Assembly: GCF_014192715.1 (NCBI RefSeq)
Contig: NZ_JACHYH010000005.1
Coordinates: forward strand, 186,001 to 250,000
Reading direction: 5' to 3'
Length of the DNA stretch: 64,000 bases
DNA from: Luteibacter sp. Sphag1AF
GTDB taxonomy: Bacteria > Pseudomonadota > Gammaproteobacteria > Xanthomonadales > Rhodanobacteraceae
In this document: positions 4,101 through 11,010 of the stretch, one piece after another
Layout of the letters: every line of letters starts with the position of its first letter
How positions within the stretch are numbered: position 1 is the first letter of the stretch
Position numbers and translations under genes: made by a program
The notes under the pieces: model-generated
What the model was told of the DNA's origin: nothing
What the model saw: the letters and a program-made list of their open reading frames with translations, nothing else
The model's database searches: none

Positions 4101-4331
4101 TGATCTGCCTTCAAAGTAGTAAATGCTCGCTAAACCCCGGCTCTTCGGGGCAGTGATCAATGTTTAGTTCCGCGCACCTTTGCATGGATGCGTGGACGAG
4201 CCGCCGAGGAAATGATCAACCTTCAGTTCCGTTCTGCGGAGAACTAATTCCCGATCTTTTCTTAAGATGTTAAATGCTTGGTAAATTCAGCCCGTTTGGG
4301 CTAGTAACGATCTCAATTTAGTTCCGCGCAC
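4101..4331. repeat. two imperfect structured direct repeats plus a partial third
   Basis: Copy 1 (about 4101-4180) and copy 2 (about 4254-4331) are 78-79 bp imperfect direct repeats. Each reads GATCT, a short spacer, TAAATGCT, an outer arm, a small inner hairpin, an AGTRAYGATC-like stretch, the second outer arm, then TTAGTTCCGCGCAC. The outer arms pair in both copies but differ in sequence (CTAAAC with GTTTAG; TAAATT with AATTTA). So do the inner hairpins (CCCGG with CGGGG-type pairing; AGCCC with GGGCT). A partial copy at about 4211-4231 keeps only ATGATCAACCTTCAGTTCCG. The compensating changes suggest a selected RNA or single-stranded DNA structure. No gene lies in 4088-4407. Confidence 0.6.
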
Positions 4332-4407
4332 TTCAGGCGCTTGCTGATTTGCGAGCAGGAAAATTCAGGGGGCGGCAGTTCTTGTCTCTTGAGCCCTACC
4401 TGCTTTT

Positions 4408-4435
4408 AGTTCGCATAATGTATATTATGTAAAAC
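4408..4435 (+). other. dif: attL: chromosomal dif left half (XerC arm) and phage XerD arm
   Basis: The layout is XerC arm AGTTCGCATAA (4408-4418), central TGTATA (4419-4424) and XerD arm TTATGTAAAAC (4425-4435). From memory, E. coli dif has XerC arm GGTGCGCATAA, the same central hexamer, and XerD arm TTATGTTAAAT, so the match is strong. Because a related site lies at the other end of the prophage, this is read as the left junction of XerCD-mediated integration. Confidence 0.85.
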
Positions 4436-4507
4436 GAAGGATGCGTCGGAAGATTGCTGGCATGCTTCTTGCGGTGGCCGAGGCCCTACGATCTTCGAGA
4501 CACCGCT

Positions 4508-4924
4508 ATGCGCTTCCACTGGACGTTTGACGACACAGAACAAATCCTTCGCGCACCCTCTGGATGGGCCATCAGCGTGCGCGAAATCGCCCAGGGTCTT
4601 CAAGACCGCCTCCACAACCGACATGACCTGACCGGCCCTTGGGCCGGTTGGCGTGTAAGGGGCCGCGAATTACGCGGAAAGCTGCGAGGCAGAACGATCA
4701 GCGTAACGCCGGAGCTGCTGAACTTGGCGCTTGAGGCATTGGATAGCACGTGCCAGCCGGCTTGGTGTAGTAATCAAGCATCGCGTGCGCATGAGCAAGA
4801 TCCGCGCGAAGGATCTCAATTTCCTGCTCAGCACTGTCCTGAGGTGCAGTGCGGACCACCAGCTGGCGGACAGGCTCAGCAACCGGATAACGACGCACGT
4901 ACTCCTGATAGCCCACGTATGTGA
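4508..4924 (+). CDS. small phage protein, DUF3653-like
   Basis: A 138-residue frame starting at ATG 4508. The first ~85 residues look real and contain TGPWAGWRVRGRELRGK followed by ISVTPELL, the pattern I associate with small DUF3653-type proteins of Xanthomonas filamentous phages. The last ~55 residues lie antisense to the leftward gene at 4698-4964 and are low-complexity, so the true end may differ. On the circular phage genome this gene would lie directly downstream of, and overlap by 23 bases, the repressor gene read through the attachment site. That suggests a repressor operon. Function unknown; perhaps regulatory. Confidence 0.5.
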   Translation: MRFHWTFDDTEQILRAPSGWAISVREIAQGLQDRLHNRHDLTGPWAGWRVRGRELRGKLRGRTISVTPELLNLALEALDSTCQPAWCSNQASRAHEQDPREGSQFPAQHCPEVQCGPPAGGQAQQPDNDARTPDSPRM

Positions 4925-4964
4925 TGGCCAGAATGACAGCGGCAACGATTGTCGAACGATCCAT
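4698..4964 (-). CDS. small membrane protein of the phage
   Basis: An 88-residue protein starting at the ATG at 4964, chosen over an upstream in-frame start because GGACAAGGG precedes it. An N-terminal membrane segment (STIVAAVILAITYVGYQEYV) is followed by a charged, helix-forming region (EQEIEILRADLAHAHAML) and a Pro/Ala-rich end. The shape, a short cytoplasmic tail, one transmembrane helix and a coiled-coil-like segment, resembles Rz-type spanins, but filamentous phages do not lyse, so that reading is doubtful. It lies beyond the terminator that follows zot and overlaps the rightward gene at 4508 tail to tail. Confidence 0.5.
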   Translation of the reverse strand: MDRSTIVAAVILAITYVGYQEYVRRYPVAEPVRQLVVRTAPQDSAEQEIEILRADLAHAHAMLDYYTKPAGTCYPMPQAPSSAAPALR

Positions 4965-5040
4965 CCCTTGTCCACCCGTGGAAACGCGTGAGGATAGCCG
5001 AACAGCAAAAGCGGTTGTCGGGGAATGGATTGAGGTCAAA

Positions 5041-5072
5041 GAAAAGCCCCGGACAGCGATGGTCGGGGCTTC
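5041..5072 (-). terminator. Rho-independent terminator after zot
   Basis: On the minus strand an 8-bp GC-rich stem (AAGCCCCG at 5064-5071 pairing with CGGGGCTT at 5044-5051) is followed by TTCTTTG. It sits 55 bp past the zot stop codon and should end the main leftward phage transcript. Confidence 0.75.
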
Positions 5073-5100
5073 TTCGTTGGAGAGGTTCGAGAGCGTATCC

Positions 5101-5119
5101 GTAGGGGTTCCACCCCTAC
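5101..5119. other. perfect hairpin between zot and its terminator
   Basis: GTAGGGGT and ACCCCTAC form 8-bp perfect arms around a TCC loop. There is no T-tract, so it is not a terminator by itself. Intergenic hairpins after the last morphogenesis gene are where filamentous phages keep their replication origin and packaging signal, so this is a candidate, unproven. Confidence 0.4.
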
Positions 5120-5126
5120 ACCCCGA

Positions 5127-6272
5127 TCAGCGGTCGCCGGAAAGGGCGCTGACAACCGTTTGCTGCGGAGGGATGTACGCGGCTTGCCCGATCCCCGCCT
5201 TCCATGTGCCACTGACGCCCCCTGTCATGGCTACAGCGTCCGCCGACGGCGGCGAAGCCGCTGTCGACGGCGGACGCTGTCCCTCCCTGTCAGAGCGCGA
5301 GCCGGGCGGCTCTTGGAAGGGGTTATACATGCCGCCTTCGCGCACTATCGCGCGACACATGTTGACTTCGACCTGATACCGCGTGCCCTGCTCCGTGTTG
5401 CACAAGCAACGACCATCCTCCGAGGCAATGCAATACAAACGCGGCTGCGCTCGCACGGCCATACCATCAAACGCCGGAGCTGACCACGGAACACCATCCA
5501 CACGCGGCTTAATCCATTGCGTATAGCTCTCCGTACGCAACTCCGCCGCATGCCTCGCACGCTCTCCAAGCTCCGGTTCGTGTGCACCGTCATTGCTCAT
5601 CCTCCCCACCTGCTTGATGGAGTCAGTGTTCTGCACCTGCGCCTTGCGAATCAACACAGGCACCGATACCGCAGCCGCAATCGCAACCACGACCAACACG
5701 GCGAAGATGTACACCTTGCGCGGAATGCTGCGCTTCATCGTGTGCAGCGATGACGACTTGTACAGCTCGAAAACTTGTTTGGGCAATGTGCCCACGGACT
5801 CCACCGCGGACTTCTGCACAGAGCCCTTTTCTGGGTCATCCATGCACCTGCCCCACGTATATCGCGACACAACAGTGCTCTTGAACTTGCGCACCGTATG
5901 CACGTGCTTGTCAACCAAGCGGCGCACGTACGCGCTCATGTTCTGCGGGTGCTGCGTCGTGAGCAGGAAGTCCATGCCGTGATGACGCACCTTCGCAATA
6001 CGCTGCACCCAAAGAGCCGGGTTGCCTCGATCCTTGGGCATCAAATGCTCTTCCTGACACTCATCAAGGCAGATGATCGAACCGGGCGGCAGCTCCCACC
6101 AAGCGTGCAATTGCTCCATGGTCAGTTCAGCGGCAAGGCCCTCCTTAAGCCCGTTGATACCCATCGCGAAGATCGGCCTACCCGGTTCCGCTTCTCGCAA
6201 CCGAACAATCTCCGCGACAAGCTGCGCAGTCTTGCCCGCACCTGGCAGTCCGGTGAACAAAGCAACTGGCAT
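5127..6272 (-). CDS. zot: Zot-like assembly ATPase (pI)
   Basis: A 381-residue inner-membrane ATPase that drives filamentous virion assembly and extrusion, the counterpart of Ff pI and CTXphi Zot. Walker A GLPGAGKT lies at residues 8-15 and a Walker B-like IICLDECQ near 65-72. One membrane segment (VYIFAVLVVVAIAAAVSVPV) is near residue 200, with a periplasmic tail that has two Cys in IASEDGRCLC. The start at 6272 is fixed by a TAATG overlap with the upstream gene, which also indicates translational coupling. Length and domain order fit the family. Confidence 0.93.
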   Translation of the reverse strand: MPVALFTGLPGAGKTAQLVAEIVRLREAEPGRPIFAMGINGLKEGLAAELTMEQLHAWWELPPGSIICLDECQEEHLMPKDRGNPALWVQRIAKVRHHGMDFLLTTQHPQNMSAYVRRLVDKHVHTVRKFKSTVVSRYTWGRCMDDPEKGSVQKSAVESVGTLPKQVFELYKSSSLHTMKRSIPRKVYIFAVLVVVAIAAAVSVPVLIRKAQVQNTDSIKQVGRMSNDGAHEPELGERARHAAELRTESYTQWIKPRVDGVPWSAPAFDGMAVRAQPRLYCIASEDGRCLCNTEQGTRYQVEVNMCRAIVREGGMYNPFQEPPGSRSDREGQRPPSTAASPPSADAVAMTGGVSGTWKAGIGQAAYIPPQQTVVSALSGDR

Positions 6273-6553
6273 TACTTGGCCCTCATCGTAAAGAACGACT
6301 TGGTGCTGTTCACCCACGCACGACCCGCGAGCGCGCTCAACACAATGGTGATATGCACGTCAATACCGAGAAAGCCGACGTACTCAGCGAGGATGCCTGC
6401 TTGCGCGAAACGCTGCGCAATCAGATCGCGCACGGGCGAAATGACGACCGTGTACGTGGCCAAACCAACAGCAGCGCCCGCCATGGCCTTGATAGCAAAC
6501 TCACCCGCAACGGTGAGAAGCATGCGTCCAATCCAACCTACGATGACTGGCAT
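6272..6553 (-). CDS. pVI-like minor coat protein (DUF2523)
   Basis: A 93-residue hydrophobic protein with three likely membrane segments. Position and size match the DUF2523 / pVI minor coat proteins that sit between the adsorption protein and Zot in Xanthomonas and Pseudomonas inoviruses. pVI caps the virion end together with pIII. The start overlaps the previous stop as TAATG, and its own stop overlaps the zot start in the same way. Confidence 0.85.
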   Translation of the reverse strand: MPVIVGWIGRMLLTVAGEFAIKAMAGAAVGLATYTVVISPVRDLIAQRFAQAGILAEYVGFLGIDVHITIVLSALAGRAWVNSTKSFFTMRAK

Positions 6554-8004
6554 TACGCGGTCCCTCCGGCCGTGATCTTCGCGGCCCAGTACAACCCGAA
6601 AGCGATCACAATCAGCCGGATCAAATCACCCCACTGACACCCCTCACTAAACTTGACGGTGAACGACTTGCCGTTGAACAAGGGCACAACAACGTCATGC
6701 ATCGGGCACGTGGAGGTGAACCCCATGCCACTGGAGTCATAGAGACCGTGATTCGCGTTCTCAGCAATGGCATCCGGACTCTTTGGTGAATCCACCCACG
6801 CCTTCGTACCCGATGGCGTGGTGATATCACCAGCGTCACCGGTTCCGTTCAACGACTTGTCCAGCTTTGCGGTCATGCCATCGACCGCGCACCGGGTCTG
6901 CCACGCCTGCGTGGCCACCATTCCCAACGCGGCACTACCGGACACAAAGGGCGGGTTGTTGCAATCCCCTCCCCCGCTCGCGCCCGTGTTGTCTTTGGCG
7001 GGTGCCGGACTTGTACCCGAGCCCGCAGGCTGCGCAGGGGGCTTCGTATCCGCAGGCCCCGCACCGTTGCTGATCGTTCCGCCGCCGTTGACGTAGCCAC
7101 CGACGCCAATGTTGCCGACGCCGCCCGTCGCCGGATTGCCCCCTGTATAGCCGTCTGTTCCGCGCGTCTGTGTTGGAGGGTCAGGGACCGACTTAGGAGG
7201 CGGCGCAGGTGCTTGCGGGCTGCCAGCGCACAGGGTGATGTTTCCGTTCGTAGAGCACGAACCGTTGCTACCGGAAGAGCCATTGCTCGCCCCGGGCGTA
7301 GGAGCGGGAACACAGGTCTGTACACCCGACTCACTCACGGCACAAAACTGGTTCTTGCCGGGGTCATAGCACGAAAGGCCGCCACAGACCTTCGGGGGGT
7401 CTTTCGGGGGCGGGTCCTTGGGTGGCTCTGCGGGAGGCGGTACGTCGGGCGCTGGAACGCCCTCAGGCGGCTCCCATCCGCCACCGGCACCGGGTCCGTT
7501 ACCGCAGAGGCTGCCTGTCGGTGCAAACGTGCCGTACGTCCACCAATTGCCCCATGGATTCTTGATGGGCATGCCGTCCGTGTGAAATTTCATGCCGCAC
7601 TTGACTGTAGAGCCGTCAGGCTGCTTGTTGGGCCAGCAGATTTTGGTGCCGTTCGACACCTGTCCAACCCAGTTGCGCGTCTCGGGCTGCATGCCCGCAC
7701 AAGGATCGTAAGTGCCCGCGTACGGGAACACCTCGTAACGATCACCCGCGCCTTCGTCTTTGCTCAACTGCCATGCAGCCACGCGCTTGTAATCGGGCTC
7801 ATCGCGACACTTCCAGTGGTCGCGGCCCGGGCTGACTGCACGACCGGCAATAAGCGCCTGGCACTTTGCATACGCCTCGCCATACGTATCGGGTGTCACG
7901 GCCGCGCGTGACGTGCCTGGAATGACACTGCACAGCGCACACAGCACCACGGCCGCGAAAGCGAAAGCGCGTGCCCGCATCAGTCGTCGGAAAAAATAAT
8001 CCAT
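6553..8004 (-). CDS. pIII-like adsorption/minor coat protein
   Basis: A 483-residue secreted and membrane-anchored protein. A signal peptide (FAFAAVVLCALCSVIPGTSRA) is followed by a Cys-rich N-terminal domain. A Pro- then Gly/Ser-rich linker spans about residues 175-330 (PPPAEPPKDPPP; GTDGYTGGNPATGG). A C-terminal domain ends in a membrane helix (LIRLIVIAFGLYWAAKI). Receptor-binding domain, flexible linker and membrane anchor is the pIII layout; the sequence belongs near the attachment proteins of Xanthomonas inoviruses. I start it at ATG 8004, which has CTGGGGGC upstream, rather than an in-frame GTG eight codons earlier. Confidence 0.88.
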   Translation of the reverse strand: MDYFFRRLMRARAFAFAAVVLCALCSVIPGTSRAAVTPDTYGEAYAKCQALIAGRAVSPGRDHWKCRDEPDYKRVAAWQLSKDEGAGDRYEVFPYAGTYDPCAGMQPETRNWVGQVSNGTKICWPNKQPDGSTVKCGMKFHTDGMPIKNPWGNWWTYGTFAPTGSLCGNGPGAGGGWEPPEGVPAPDVPPPAEPPKDPPPKDPPKVCGGLSCYDPGKNQFCAVSESGVQTCVPAPTPGASNGSSGSNGSCSTNGNITLCAGSPQAPAPPPKSVPDPPTQTRGTDGYTGGNPATGGVGNIGVGGYVNGGGTISNGAGPADTKPPAQPAGSGTSPAPAKDNTGASGGGDCNNPPFVSGSAALGMVATQAWQTRCAVDGMTAKLDKSLNGTGDAGDITTPSGTKAWVDSPKSPDAIAENANHGLYDSSGMGFTSTCPMHDVVVPLFNGKSFTVKFSEGCQWGDLIRLIVIAFGLYWAAKITAGGTA

Positions 8005-8054
8005 GCAGCCCCCAGCAGTGCCAGACACACCCAGTAACCCGCGTATGCGATCAC
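7980..8054 (-). CDS. tiny pVII/pIX-like coat peptide, GTG start
   Basis: A 24-residue hydrophobic peptide (VIAYAGYWVCLALLGAAW…, ending FSDD). It starts at GTG 8054, seven bases after GAGGG, and overlaps the adsorption gene start by 25 bases. Ff phage pVII and pIX are 33- and 32-residue single-helix proteins encoded between the ssDNA-binding and coat genes. This peptide has the same character and a comparable place. It is easily missed because of its size and start codon. Confidence 0.6.
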   Translation of the reverse strand: MIAYAGYWVCLALLGAAWIIFSDD

Positions 8055-8065
8055 GTCGTAACCCT

Positions 8066-8099
8066 CAAAAAAAGGGCGGGAGCGTCGCCGCCCCCGCCG
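8066..8099 (-). terminator. terminator after the major coat gene
   Basis: On the minus strand, GGCGGGGGCGGCGACGCTCC pairs back with CCGCCC (8074-8099) and is followed by seven T. It lies just downstream of the major coat gene and upstream of the low-copy minor coat genes. Ff phages use a terminator at the same point to make coat protein in excess. Confidence 0.8.
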
Positions 8100-8112
8100 C
8101 CTGCTACATCGT

Positions 8113-8331
8113 TTAGCCCGCCGCCTTGATCCACTTGTAGAGCTTGATGCCGTAGTGCATGGACAGCACAGCCACACCAATCGCGGCAGCCGCAACGCCC
8201 GCCGACTGAATCGTGGAAATGATGGCGGCGGTATCGACCGTATCGGCAGCCATCGCCGAGCCCGCAGCAAAAGCCGACGCAGTGAAGCCAGTGGCAACGA
8301 GCGTCTTGAGGTGCGTGTTTTTGGTCTGCAT
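8113..8331 (-). CDS. major coat protein (pVIII)
   Basis: A 72-residue precursor. A signal peptide (TLVATGFTASAFAAGSAMA) with an AMA cleavage site leaves a ~46-residue mature helix: an acidic start (ADTVDT), a hydrophobic middle (AGVAAAAIGVAVLSM), and a basic DNA-facing end (YGIKLYKWIKAAG). These are the hallmarks of inovirus major coat proteins. The start at 8331 has GGAG 9 bases upstream; a longer frame exists but reads through the previous gene. It is followed directly by a terminator. Confidence 0.93.
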   Translation of the reverse strand: MQTKNTHLKTLVATGFTASAFAAGSAMAADTVDTAAIISTIQSAGVAAAAIGVAVLSMHYGIKLYKWIKAAG

Positions 8332-8336
8332 GATCT

Positions 8337-8537
8337 TCAATCTCCCACCCGTTTCATCTTTTTGAATCCGTACGCGATAGCCCAAACGGACAAAACAGCC
8401 ACGCCCACGGCGACACCGGATGCGGTGTCAAATTCAGGGATGAGAGAAGGGATATGCACCCACATGATCTGGCTGCAAGCGCCGGTTGTTTGGTCGATGT
8501 TCTCGCTCAAACACATCATTACCATGGGAAGCGACAT
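8337..8537 (-). CDS. minor coat-like membrane protein
   Basis: A 66-residue protein with a strong ribosome site (AGGAGGGT) before ATG 8537. The N-terminal part has two Cys (CLSENIDQTTGAC). It is followed by a membrane segment (SGVAVGVAVLSVWAIAYGF) and a basic end (KKMKRVGD). The topology equals that of coat proteins but there is no signal peptide, as in pIX/pVII-type minor coats. It lies 5 bp before the major coat gene, so the two are cotranscribed. Confidence 0.8.
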   Translation of the reverse strand: MSLPMVMMCLSENIDQTTGACSQIMWVHIPSLIPEFDTASGVAVGVAVLSVWAIAYGFKKMKRVGD

Positions 8538-8643
8538 ACACCCTCCTAGTCATCGTTGGCGCACACGGGACTCGTGTACCCCGAGAAAAATCCTTACGCG
8601 TCCAACCCTCATAGCCCCGAGCAGTGATCTAGAAGCGAAGATC

Positions 8644-8670
8644 GAAGGGGAGATAAACGATCCCCCCTTC
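8644..8670. other. stem-loop between ssDNA-binding and coat genes
   Basis: GAAGGGG (8644-8650) pairs with CCCCTTC (8664-8670) around a 13-base loop. On the minus strand it is followed by a weakly T-rich stretch. It may be a processing or attenuation site separating early and coat genes. The surrounding 8538-8697 holds no other gene. Confidence 0.45.
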
Positions 8671-8697
8671 ACCCCCCGGGAGTGAGAGCGTTACAGC

Positions 8698-8751
8698 TCA
8701 GTGCACGACGCCTGCAAGCCAGAGAGCGACGTAGAGCGCATTGAGCTTCAT
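8698..8751 (-). CDS. possible 17-residue hydrophobic phage peptide
   Basis: The frame MKLNALYVALWLAGVVH begins at ATG 8751 and its ATGA overlaps the stop of the ssDNA-binding protein, which would couple translation. It encodes one short hydrophobic helix with a Lys near the start. It is shorter than any known inovirus coat protein, so it may be chance or a leader. Reported because of the overlap and the hydrophobic pattern only. Confidence 0.3.
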   Translation of the reverse strand: MKLNALYVALWLAGVVH

Positions 8752-9011
8752 ACCTTCGAGGCCGCAACCGGGACGAGCGTATAGCCGTAATGAAGGTTGC
8801 CGTTGCGGTCGAGATACGGCTTTTCAGGCTCCACCTTGTAGTCACCCTCGGGCAAAGGCTTCTCGTTGCGCGTCGGGCTGAACATGCGGTCAAACATCTG
8901 GAACATGCCCGGGCCCATCTGGAGGCCGCACTTCTGGAACCCGAACGACTGCGACGGGTCCTTACGGCCCTGAGCAACGCGAACCTCGGACGTGACTCGA
9001 ATGATGTTCAT
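8748..9011 (-). CDS. ssDNA-binding protein (pV-like)
   Basis: An 87-residue protein, start at ATG 9011 with AAGGA upstream. It is small, with basic and aromatic residues (FGFQKCGLQMGPGMFQMF; GNLHYGYTLVPV) and no membrane segment. Length and place directly after Rep match gene V proteins, which coat the single-stranded phage genome before extrusion and can repress translation. The sequence is distant from Ff pV, as is typical for Xanthomonas phages. Confidence 0.75.
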   Translation of the reverse strand: MNIIRVTSEVRVAQGRKDPSQSFGFQKCGLQMGPGMFQMFDRMFSPTRNEKPLPEGDYKVEPEKPYLDRNGNLHYGYTLVPVAASKV

Positions 9012-9039
9012 AATGAATCCTTTTGGCCGTCCAAACGGC

Positions 9040-10266
9040 CTAGACAGTGATAGATGAGGAAGGAACGTTGTAGTCGCCCGGAAGCACGAAGCGCGCCGCC
9101 AGATCACGTGCCGGTCGAAGGACCGGATCAAACAAAGCTGACCCTTGGTAGATGCCCTCGGCCCACGCCGGAAGCTTCTCTGCCTTGAGCAGCGACTCCA
9201 CAGCGCCCGCAAATTCACCTGGCGTTGTGCAGAACTTGCGCAGTGCGTTCACGACACGACCGCATTGACGCTTCGCATGACGAAGCGAACCCGCCATGCA
9301 AGCAGCTGCCTTGGCAACAGACGTCTGCATGCGCGTCGACAACTCGCTGATCCAGCTCAGCGGAGGATAGTGACCCGTGATGAATTCCCACGGGCGTTCA
9401 AGAATGTCGTACGGGATTTCCCGGTACTTGGCACCGAAACGCGCTTCAAAGCGAACCCAAGGGCTGCTGGGGTCGCCGAGCTGCTTACCCTTCTCGTACA
9501 CGCACAAACGTTGATTGCCTTCGTTCTTGCCGACATAGATCGTCTGGCCAGAGCCGTCATTGAAGCCTTGATAACCAATCGCAGGCGGACGACCACGGCT
9601 CGTAAACTGCCCTTCGTCGTACCACCGCTGCACATCCGCAAGCGTGTGCCTGCCCTCTTTGTCGTCGTGTGCGCAATCGACACGGCTGAGCTTGGCGCCC
9701 CACCCTTCCAGCACCTCACGCGTGTGCGCCCACGCCACGACGTGGGCGCAGCCTTCACCGGTCAATTCAACGCAGAACGTGCCGCGTTGGCGTTCACCAC
9801 CGAGCGCGACAAACCCGCACACCTTGCCTTCTGGCGTCAGAATGCGGCAGTGCTTGTCGTAGAAGTTGCGAAAGCCGCGCACCTGCTCATCAACACGCAA
9901 GCCGCTTCCCGGCGCGATGGCATGCAGCGCGTAACGACACAACAGTTCAACGCTCGAATCGCAACCATCCACCGCAGCCGCGCGCAAGCGAGCGCCGAAC
10001 TCTCCCTGCTGCAACGCCGAGAGCTGCGCCGTGAACGTCAAAAAATCGACAATCGCAAGAGCCCCGGCTTCGATGGGTTCGTCAACGAGAGTCGCAACTG
10101 AGGACTTTAGTCCCCTGTTAGCTGAGGGGACCATCGCCGCTGAGCGGCGATCCGCACCCGCACGAAACGGTGCGTCGATGGCGTTGAGCATCGGGATGTA
10201 GTCACGACGAAGTCGCTCGGCGTACTGAGCGCCTGACTCGGTGATGCAAATGGCTGGCGGCTTCAC
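9040..10266 (-). CDS. rolling-circle replication initiator (pII-like)
   Basis: A 408-residue replication initiation protein of the Rep_trans / phage RstA-like type. It nicks the plus-strand origin and starts rolling-circle synthesis. Recognisable blocks include LSRVDCAHD followed by QTIYVGKN and RLCVYEKGKQLG, the family's conserved metal- and Tyr-containing segments. Start is GTG 10266, whose GTGA overlaps the stop of the upstream gene. Family assignment rests on these blocks and the context. Confidence 0.88.
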   Translation of the reverse strand: MKPPAICITESGAQYAERLRRDYIPMLNAIDAPFRAGADRRSAAMVPSANRGLKSSVATLVDEPIEAGALAIVDFLTFTAQLSALQQGEFGARLRAAAVDGCDSSVELLCRYALHAIAPGSGLRVDEQVRGFRNFYDKHCRILTPEGKVCGFVALGGERQRGTFCVELTGEGCAHVVAWAHTREVLEGWGAKLSRVDCAHDDKEGRHTLADVQRWYDEGQFTSRGRPPAIGYQGFNDGSGQTIYVGKNEGNQRLCVYEKGKQLGDPSSPWVRFEARFGAKYREIPYDILERPWEFITGHYPPLSWISELSTRMQTSVAKAAACMAGSLRHAKRQCGRVVNALRKFCTTPGEFAGAVESLLKAEKLPAWAEGIYQGSALFDPVLRPARDLAARFVLPGDYNVPSSSITV

Positions 10267-10430
10267 AGCGACGCCACAACGAAGGCACGGAACGAGAGGG
10301 AATCGGCTTCATCGGCCATATCGGCAGCGCGCTCGAAGTCCTGACGATCAAGATAGTTGGCTTCCAGTGCGAGCGCGCCCTCGCACTCACGACCGTATTG
10401 CTCGATCAAGCGCATCTGCCAACCGTGCAT
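10263..10430 (-). CDS. small early phage protein
   Basis: A 55-residue acidic soluble protein (EGALALEANYLDRQDFERAA). Starts at ATG 10430 in a TGATG overlap with the upstream gene and overlaps rep by GTGA, so the three genes form one coupled unit. Not recognised. Size and place suggest an accessory replication or regulatory factor. Confidence 0.6.
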   Translation of the reverse strand: MHGWQMRLIEQYGRECEGALALEANYLDRQDFERAADMADEADSLSFRAFVVASL

Positions 10431-10555
10431 CACAGCCACCCTGCCCGCTTGAGAGCGTCCTGACGTTCGACGTATCGACGGATACGGAGGGTCAGCAGTA
10501 CGACGCCCGGAAGCGTGCATGCAGCGATTGCGAAAGCGGCAGCATTAATAACCAT
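10430..10555 (-). CDS. small membrane phage protein
   Basis: A 41-residue protein: a membrane helix (AAAFAIAACTLPGVVLLTL) followed by a basic tail (RIRRYVERQDALKRAGW). Start ATG 10555 has GGGGGCC upstream. It is the first gene of the leftward phage operon, directly behind the operator palindromes. Function unknown. Confidence 0.55.
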   Translation of the reverse strand: MVINAAAFAIAACTLPGVVLLTLRIRRYVERQDALKRAGWL

Positions 10556-10570
10556 CGGTGGCCCCCATGC

Positions 10571-10630
10571 CTTCAAAGACTCTTTGAAGTTGGGCGGATT
10601 AAAGTACCCTTTGAAGCACTTGTCAAAGGG
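10571..10630. promoter_or_regulatory. operator palindromes of the phage switch
   Basis: A perfect palindrome CTTCAAAG-ACT-CTTTGAAG (10571-10589) and a second inverted pair CCCTTTG (10607-10613) / CAAAGGG (10624-10630) lie between the divergent repressor and early genes. A further CTTTGAA half-site touches the repressor start. Repeated TTTGAAG half-sites in a divergent promoter region are the expected repressor binding sites. Confidence 0.75.
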
Positions 10631-10638
10631 TCTTTGAA

Positions 10639-11010
10639 ATGTCTGCCACAATTAAATTACTTGACGCGTACGTCAAAATGTGCTCGCACAAGAACGATAG
10701 CGAGGCAGCACGTGCGCTGCGCGTCACGCCGCAGACCGTGAATAACTGGCGAAAGGCGAAGTCACACCCCGACGCAGAAAGCGTGGAGCGGATGTGCATG
10801 GCCGTAAACGAGCCCGTCGCGCACTGGCTACCGCTTATCGAAGCGGAGAGGGCGAGAACGCCGGAAGCGCGCAGGGTGTGGCTTCGACTTGCTCAAGCCG
10901 CCGCGTGCATAACGTTGATTGCAGGCTTGACAAGTGCACCCTACCCGGCGCAGGCACGAGGGGCTTTTTTCGCAGAAAACGCCAGCTCTGTATATTATGT
11001 CAAATCGTAG
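10639..11010 (+). CDS. phage repressor/regulator, DUF3693-like, C-terminus in attR
   Basis: A 123-residue protein with an N-terminal helix-turn-helix (SEAARALRVTPQTVNNWRK, residues ~20-40), a linker, and a hydrophobic segment (WLRLAQAAACITLIAGL). This layout matches DUF3693-type proteins at the edge of Xanthomonas inoviruses. It is divergent from the early operon and presumably binds the palindromes at its start. The last codons (VYYVKS and TAG) lie inside the attachment site, and the stop is supplied by host DNA. On the circular phage, the frame would continue from the core into 4425-4530, giving 153 residues with a basic amphipathic tail (MRRKIAGMLLAVAEALR). Confidence 0.85.
   Translation: MSATIKLLDAYVKMCSHKNDSEAARALRVTPQTVNNWRKAKSHPDAESVERMCMAVNEPVAHWLPLIEAERARTPEARRVWLRLAQAAACITLIAGLTSAPYPAQARGAFFAENASSVYYVKS
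10978..11005 (+). other. dif: attR: phage XerC arm and chromosomal dif right half
   Basis: A divergent XerC arm (AACGCCAGCTC, 10978-10988), central TGTATA (10989-10994) and a good XerD arm (TTATGTCAAAT, 10995-11005). A poor XerC arm on the phage side is typical of inovirus attP sites. The left arm of attL plus this right arm rebuilds a dif that differs from E. coli dif at three positions by my count. Confidence 0.8.

What the first reader, a model, noticed from the sequence alone, without database searches (positions are those of the whole stretch)
10639..11010. Integration into dif rewrites the C-terminus of the phage repressor
In the prophage the repressor frame enters the attachment core and stops at a TAG 5 bases beyond the host XerD arm (123 residues). 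If the phage is circularised by joining the core to its left end (10994 to 4425), the same frame stays open. It runs through AAACGAAGG and on to a TGA at 4528-4530, giving 153 residues with a basic amphipathic tail (MRRKIAGMLLAVAEALR). It then overlaps the next rightward gene (start 4508) by 23 bases, as phage operons do. So lysogen and free phage would make two forms of the regulator, and integration also cuts the repressor from its downstream gene. This could act as a built-in switch reporting integration state.
Basis: partly seen in the sequence, partly recalled or inferred. Interest (0 to 1): 0.85.

Follow-up and report, generated by a model that had tools for sequence, protein, structure and literature searches.

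The report
Integration trims a phage's own regulator
A filamentous virus sitting in a Luteibacter chromosome has its insertion site inside its regulator gene, so inserting cuts the tail off that protein and separates it from the next gene; the layout is known in relatives, and comparison shows the longer free-virus form is kept by selection.

Summary
A filamentous prophage (inovirus) occupies dif at about 4419-11000. Its HTH regulator (10639-11010) has 123 residues in the prophage. Joining the two 12-bp cores gives 153 residues, overlapping the next gene by 23 bases. The open junction alone proves little: 60% of arbitrary joins extend the frame by 20 or more residues. Comparison is what settles it. 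In 45 circular forms the C-terminal tail is always net positive and total length is 155±8, while prophage extensions run from 0 to 282 residues. The dif core is read in all six possible ways. Homologous tails show pN/pS 0.45 in the regulator frame against 1.14 and 1.56 in the other frames. None of the 12 phage records read encodes the short form. The concept is published: Yamada 2013 for phiRSS0, Ahmad 2014/2017 for XacF1. So this is a new member of a known kind, in Luteibacter. New here: broad evidence for selection, and the overlapping downstream gene belongs to a DUF3653 / Xer-activation-factor-like group, so integration would also disconnect a candidate recombination activator. Which form represses, and how the tail acts, is untested.

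The parts
10639..11010 (+). HTH regulator, prophage (short) form, 123 aa
   Evidence: phrog_638 transcriptional regulator E 2.7e-22; HTH_3 and DUF3693 (PF12472) matches just below cut-off
10989..11000 (+). attR core TGTATATTATGT, inside the regulator's 3' end
10995..11005 (+). host XerD arm TTATGTCAAAT of attR (arm limits by recalled dif layout)
   Evidence: sequence
4419..4430 (+). attL core TGTATATTATGT, preceded by the host XerC arm AGTTCGCATAA
4431..4530 (+). free-phage tail of the regulator (cut off from it in the prophage): KRRMRRKIAGMLLAVAEALRSSRHRYALPLDV then TGA
   Evidence: relatives
4508..4924 (+). downstream overlapping gene (138 aa), aligned with a DUF3653 / VC1465 (XafT-like) group
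   Evidence: alignment A3; 31 of 38 members match PF12375 and 23 of 38 match NF040522; the window gene alone matches neither
5127..6317 (-). Zot-like assembly protein pI
   Evidence: PF05707 2.8e-17
6272..6553 (-). minor coat protein (pVI-like)
   Evidence: phrog_1242 6.9e-10
6553..8028 (-). adsorption protein candidate (pIII position)
   Evidence: phrog_4352, unknown function, 2.3e-16; position
8113..8385 (-). major coat protein
   Evidence: PF05356 1.8e-10
8748..9218 (-). ssDNA-binding protein candidate (pV position)
   Evidence: phrog_1199 0.012, weak; position
9040..10266 (-). replication initiation protein
   Evidence: PF02486 2.3e-20, phrog_453 8.3e-74

Best explanation
An inovirus uses host XerCD to integrate at dif. 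Its attP lies inside the 3' end of its HTH regulator gene, directly before an overlapping DUF3653-like (XafT-like) gene. SHOWN by sequence: in the circle the regulator is 153 aa with a basic C-terminal tail and overlaps the downstream gene; in the prophage it is 123 aa and that gene sits at the far end without it; among relatives the circular frame is kept by selection. INFERRED: the short prophage form is the stable, lysogeny-maintaining form; the long form made by free phage is less stable or otherwise modified through its tail (ssrA-like C-degron, or a membrane-binding or second hydrophobic helix). INFERRED: integration also removes the downstream gene from the regulator's promoter and from translational coupling, lowering a recombination activator and so helping to lock the prophage; excision or tandem arrays restore the unit.
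For: Exact join and overlap. The 12 phage records read carry the long form across attP; four are annotated with attP inside the CDS. 45 circular forms: length 155±8, tail net charge positive in 45 of 45, prophage extensions 0-282 aa in 34 prophages. All six readings of the core occur (12, 12, 8, 7, 5, 1 of 45), and the same tail stays in frame behind different core frames (XacF1, L153, L146; SMA9, PSH1). Tail pN/pS 0.45 (bootstrap 0.34-0.62) against 1.14 and 1.56 in shifted frames, 16 pairs. A downstream ORF was found in 34 of 37 circles and starts before the regulator's stop in 32 of those 34. DUF3653 31 of 38, VC1465 Xer activation family 23 of 38. Long forms end in Ala in 25 of 47, and in 17 of 30 tail clusters, against 12.1% of 585 background ORFs. 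Published: deleting most of XacF1 ORF12 but keeping attP delays integration and destabilises the prophage (PMC5666396, whole text).
Against: No experiment on either form here. The window's own tail ends LDV, not Ala, and Cf1c-type tails end TG or TGQ, so a common degron is not shown; overlap with an Arg-rich reading frame may also favour Ala. When pairs are chosen by body similarity instead of tail similarity, tail pN/pS is only 0.82 (frames +1 and +2: 1.01, 1.20). The 0.45 uses in-frame blocks only; of the 77 tail pairs 37 lie wholly in frame, and of the 57 pairs with different core readings 24 do. The window's downstream gene matches neither family model alone. The three downstream genes shown singly match only the second half of NF040522 and are under its cut-off. 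No promoter for the regulator was identified: promoter-like matches (3) were near shuffle level (2.1±1.5).
Confidence: 0.6

Rival explanations
1. What matters is the downstream gene: attP sits in the regulator 3' end so that integration disconnects the recombination-activator-like gene; the change of the regulator's C-terminus is a by-product.
For: Overlap in 32 of the 34 circles with a downstream ORF; DUF3653/VC1465 matches; prophage extensions vary from 0 to 282 residues.
Against: The tail itself is under selection in its frame and net positive in 45 of 45, which a mere spacer would not need.
Confidence: 0.2
2. The site is there for convenience only: a non-essential, disordered linker tolerates attP, and both forms work alike.
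For: The core is read in all six ways; in the model of L127 the att region is a low-confidence linker.
Against: Same tails in frame behind different core frames, selection on the tail.
Confidence: 0.15
3. Coincidence in this window: the long frame is an accident of high G+C.
For: 60% of arbitrary joins are as open; off-frames are often open as well.
Against: The phage records and prophage relatives show the same arrangement.
Confidence: 0.03

Closest known systems
phiRSS0 ORF13 of Ralstonia (Yamada 2013, PMC3816273)
   Same: dif-type attP at the 3' end of a regulator gene; integration shortens it (156 to 130 aa); two functional forms proposed
   Different: Different host; sequence not compared here (record not in the collections); no role of a downstream gene in the passages read
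Xanthomonas phages XacF1, Cf1c, phiLf, phiXv2, Cf2, XaF13 and Stenotrophomonas SMA, PSH1 and SHP2 phages
   Same: HTH regulator (phrog_638/DUF3693 kind) with attP inside, followed on the same strand by a DUF3653-like gene, opposite to the structural genes
   Different: Window host is Luteibacter; body and tail sequences diverged; the window core is read as SVYYVK
Integration-dependent immunity of mycobacteriophage BPs (PMC4557955, abstract and passages)
   Same: attP inside the repressor gene; viral form 136 aa, prophage form 103 aa; a tail of about 30 residues is lost
   Different: Tailed dsDNA phage with its own integrase, another protein; degradation of the long form is shown there, not here
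XafT / VC1465 Xer recombination activation factor of a Vibrio element (Midonet 2019, not held; named in a passage of PMC9765430)
   Same: Downstream genes match the NCBIfam model of this family (23 of 38)
   Different: Matches shown singly cover only the model's second half; activity untested; window member below threshold alone

Membership tests
dif-integrating (XerCD-dependent) inovirus | Inovirus gene set (Rep, coat, Zot) | tested here: met
dif-integrating (XerCD-dependent) inovirus | Flanked by dif-derived sites, no integrase of its own | tested here: met
   no integrase match among the 10 prophage ORFs scanned
dif-integrating (XerCD-dependent) inovirus | Recombination by host XerC and XerD | not testable with these tools
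   genes present (XerC match just under cut-off), reaction not testable
phrog_638 / DUF3693 phage regulator | Profile match with N-terminal HTH | tested here: met
   phrog_638 2.7e-22; DUF3693 20.9 bits, cut-off 21
Regulator genes carrying attP (XacF1 ORF12 type) | attP within the 3' part of the gene; long form in circular phage | tested here: met
   (junction predicted, not sequenced)
Integration-dependent immunity (BPs type) | Prophage form shorter than viral form because attP lies in the repressor gene | tested here: met
   123 vs 153 aa
[quoted passage not shown]
   Ala ends in 25 of 47 forms but the window form ends LDV
Xer recombination activation factor (VC1465/NF040522) | Match above curated cut-off (70 bits) | tested here: not met
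   window gene no match at E 0.01 or at 0.1; relatives shown singly reach 39.6 bits at most
DUF3653 (PF12375) | Profile match | tested here: inconclusive
   31 of 38 aligned relatives match, the window gene itself does not; it is 56% identical to L090's gene

The most novel reading that the evidence does not exclude
One Xer crossover works as a double switch in the dif-integrating inoviruses of this order: it matures the repressor by removing a destabilising or membrane-binding tail, and at the same time unplugs the phage's own Xer activator, so that integration both starts immunity and shuts off the way out. It would be integration-dependent immunity arisen independently in single-stranded DNA phages that own no integrase.
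Probability: 0.35. Interest if true: 0.82.

Novelty: new member of a known kind. Interest (0 to 1): 0.58.

Why it matters
How integrase-less phages tell 'free' from 'integrated' and hold the prophage is open. The comparison indicates that the C-terminal change proposed from single phages is a selected feature of many relatives, and it points at a linked candidate recombination activator. Both halves are testable with small genes in laboratory strains.

Tried and rejected
Openness of the junction as proof: rejected, 60% of arbitrary joins are as open, and other frames are often open too. Amphipathic helix as the universal property: rejected; the window tail (p 0.53) and many others are no more amphipathic than their shuffles, and tails range from basic to transmembrane-like. 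A universal C-degron: not supported. Ala ends are enriched (25 of 47 forms; 17 of 30 clusters of the 45; the ends of XaF13 and of the Taiwanese phiLF were entered by hand) but absent from the window and from Cf1c-type tails, and part of it may come from the overlapping frame (Ala in 4 of 9 with little or no overlap, 13 of 24 with more). The background (12.1% of 585) is mechanical ORFs of 200 aa or more on the same loci, host ORFs included. Fold search with the L127 long-form model: best matches are HTH regulators, none at E <= 0.001. PDB sequence search with the downstream-gene profile: no match at E <= 1. Own-genome search with NF040522: five weak matches, all to the first half of the model, one of them in the regulator's HTH, none in the downstream gene. 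Scan of viral contigs with the Rep protein found no relative. Vibrio phage PG21, a weak match to a relative's regulator, is a corticovirus with a 93-residue HTH protein and was set aside.

Rows dropped before counts: of 40 entries, 11 were not taken, where L091 had no core; one search searched these 12 with the patterns and found no core near the 3' end. Of 33 entries, 12 had no core by exact patterns; some of these end in what looks like a diverged core (such as MYIM, MHYAK). Before the count of 45 I dropped L095 and L095b (tandem copies like L096), L149b (copy of L149), L162, L166 and L174 (no or doubtful downstream gene, atypical lengths), and prophages with only one core in the fetched stretch. 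L100 (14-residue tail, gap to the next gene) was kept. Some entries are one locus fetched twice (L002/L120) or appear to be (L003/L085, identical proteins). The downstream ORF was sought only from 30 bases before to 60 after the regulator's stop, 75 codons or more; none was found for L078, L162 and L166, and those of L155 and L174 are doubtful.

Full report
What is there. The window holds an inovirus prophage at dif of a Luteibacter chromosome. The genus is inferred: genome G011, called same genus, has a contig of 977,671 bases, the length of the Luteibacter rhizovicinus record found. The cores TGTATATTATGT lie at 4419 and 10989. Rep, coat, Zot and minor coat genes run leftward between them; the HTH regulator runs rightward into the right core. 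In the prophage it has 123 residues. Joined core to core it has 153, ends at TGA 4528-4530 and overlaps the next gene (4508) by 23 bases.

Is it more than chance? Not from the window alone: 5060 of 8486 arbitrary joins extend the frame by at least 20 residues, and the other frames after the junction are often open too.

Phage relatives. I read the regulator in 12 phage records: phiLf UK, phiXv2, XacF1, Cf1c, Cf2, phiSHP2, SMA9, SMA7, SMA6, PSH1, XaF13 and the Taiwanese phiLF record, which is labelled unverified. All 12 have the long form with the dif-like site inside it. SMA6 and SMA7 are described as proviral in their records. fSU1 has two cores and was not counted.

Prophage relatives. phrog_638 matched 58 of 233 genomes of the family at E <= 1e-6, many of these weak, and 48 of 398 of the order at E <= 1e-11 (the two sets overlap). 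From 65 fetched stretches, the window and viral contigs, 73 entries were examined: 40 and 33. A core lies near the regulator's 3' end in 28 of 40 and 21 of 33. After the exclusions listed under Tried and rejected, 34 prophages with both cores, 10 phages and one contig with a single uninterrupted core (L127) give 45 circular forms. They measure 155±8 residues; the tail after the core is 14-48 residues, 22-41 in 43 of 45, with positive net charge in 45 of 45. The prophage forms of the 34 have extensions of 0-282 residues (13 of 34 at most 5). So what integration adds is arbitrary; what it removes is not.

Selection on the tail. The core is read in two orientations and three frames, all six (12, 12, 8, 7, 5 and 1 of 45). 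XacF1, L153 and L146 read it in three frames, yet closely similar tails (LLTLLCAL-AYHC-SLHRKRTG) follow in frame in each; SMA9 and PSH1 likewise share a tail behind different core frames. With tails paired by nucleotide similarity (16 non-overlapping pairs, in-frame blocks only), pN/pS is 0.45 (bootstrap 0.34-0.62) in the regulator frame, 1.14 and 1.56 in the others. Of all 77 such pairs, some of them weak alignments, 37 lie wholly in frame and on average 76.5% of aligned bases do; among the 57 pairs with different core readings 24 lie wholly in frame. Paired by body similarity the ratio is weaker, 0.82 against 1.01 and 1.20, body 0.41, because tails change fast and are exchanged.

Exchange at the core. 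phiLf UK and the Taiwanese phiLF are 99.7% identical over 343 bases up to and including the core and 57.7% over the next 300; SMA9 and PSH1 are 57.6% before and 91% after. The Xer site thus seems to let heads and tails of the regulator, with the downstream gene, be shuffled.

The downstream gene. An ORF of 75 codons or more was found near the regulator's stop in 34 of 37 circles; it starts before that stop in 32 of the 34, seven of them by one base in the ATGA or GTGA manner. In an alignment of 38 such genes, 31 match DUF3653 and 23 match NF040522, the VC1465 family of Xer recombination activation factors, at E <= 0.01. The three shown singly match the second half of that model, below its cut-off. 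The window's gene matches neither alone but is 56% identical to the one of L090. A XafT-like role is therefore a lead, not a finding.

Structure. The long form of L127, modelled with 19 sequences, has a confident helical HTH part (residues 3-73), a hydrophobic helix 75-97, a low-confidence linker holding the att residues, and a C-terminal helix 129-154 at low confidence. The integrated form would lack the last helix. The HTH part resembles XRE/lambda repressors; no match reached E 0.001.

Literature. Yamada 2013 (passages, section 7) states that attP lies in phiRSS0 ORF13, that integration shortens it from 156 to 130 residues and that the two forms may differ. Ahmad 2014 (passages) and 2017 (whole text) report attP inside XacF1 ORF12, split on integration, and that a 5' deletion of ORF12 keeping attP delays integration and destabilises the prophage; [quoted passage not shown] Integration-dependent immunity of mycobacteriophage BPs (PMC4557955, abstract and passages) is the proven analogue. 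In ten literature searches I saw, in listings and the passages opened, no report of selection on the tail across relatives or of the DUF3653 gene being cut off by integration; these searches cover open-licence papers only.

Verdict. Observation confirmed; interpretation partly supported; known kind, new member.

Noticed in passing
L010 and L021; L016 and L019: Regulator bodies and tails look exchanged at the dif core between phages (phiLf UK vs Taiwan record; SMA9 vs PSH1).
   Followed up: yes
L095, L149: Tandem prophages at dif: the inner copy keeps the long regulator form while the outer copy has another, host-side end, so tandem lysogens could make both forms.
   Followed up: partly
L020 (fSU1), 3560 and 10290: The phage record fSU1 has two dif-like cores; the left one looks like a prophage junction with a host arm, so the record may include host flanks.
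   Followed up: partly
L091, L097, L098, L099, L101, L102, L103: Related regulators without a dif core near their 3' end; a natural comparison group with another or no integration site.
   Followed up: no
L074, L075, L082, L084, L087, L088, L090: At attR of these prophages the core continues TGTAAAAT and gives a TAA stop directly in the regulator frame; attL, where found (L074, L075, L087, L090), has TGTCAA.
   Followed up: partly
window 4130-4360: Host flank left of dif has repeated short motifs (such as AGTTCCGCGCAC).
   Followed up: no
window 10870-10990: The stretch between the HTH and the att core is hydrophobic, with an AxA-type motif in many relatives (such as PAHAE), like a signal anchor; the regulator may be membrane-bound.
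   Followed up: partly
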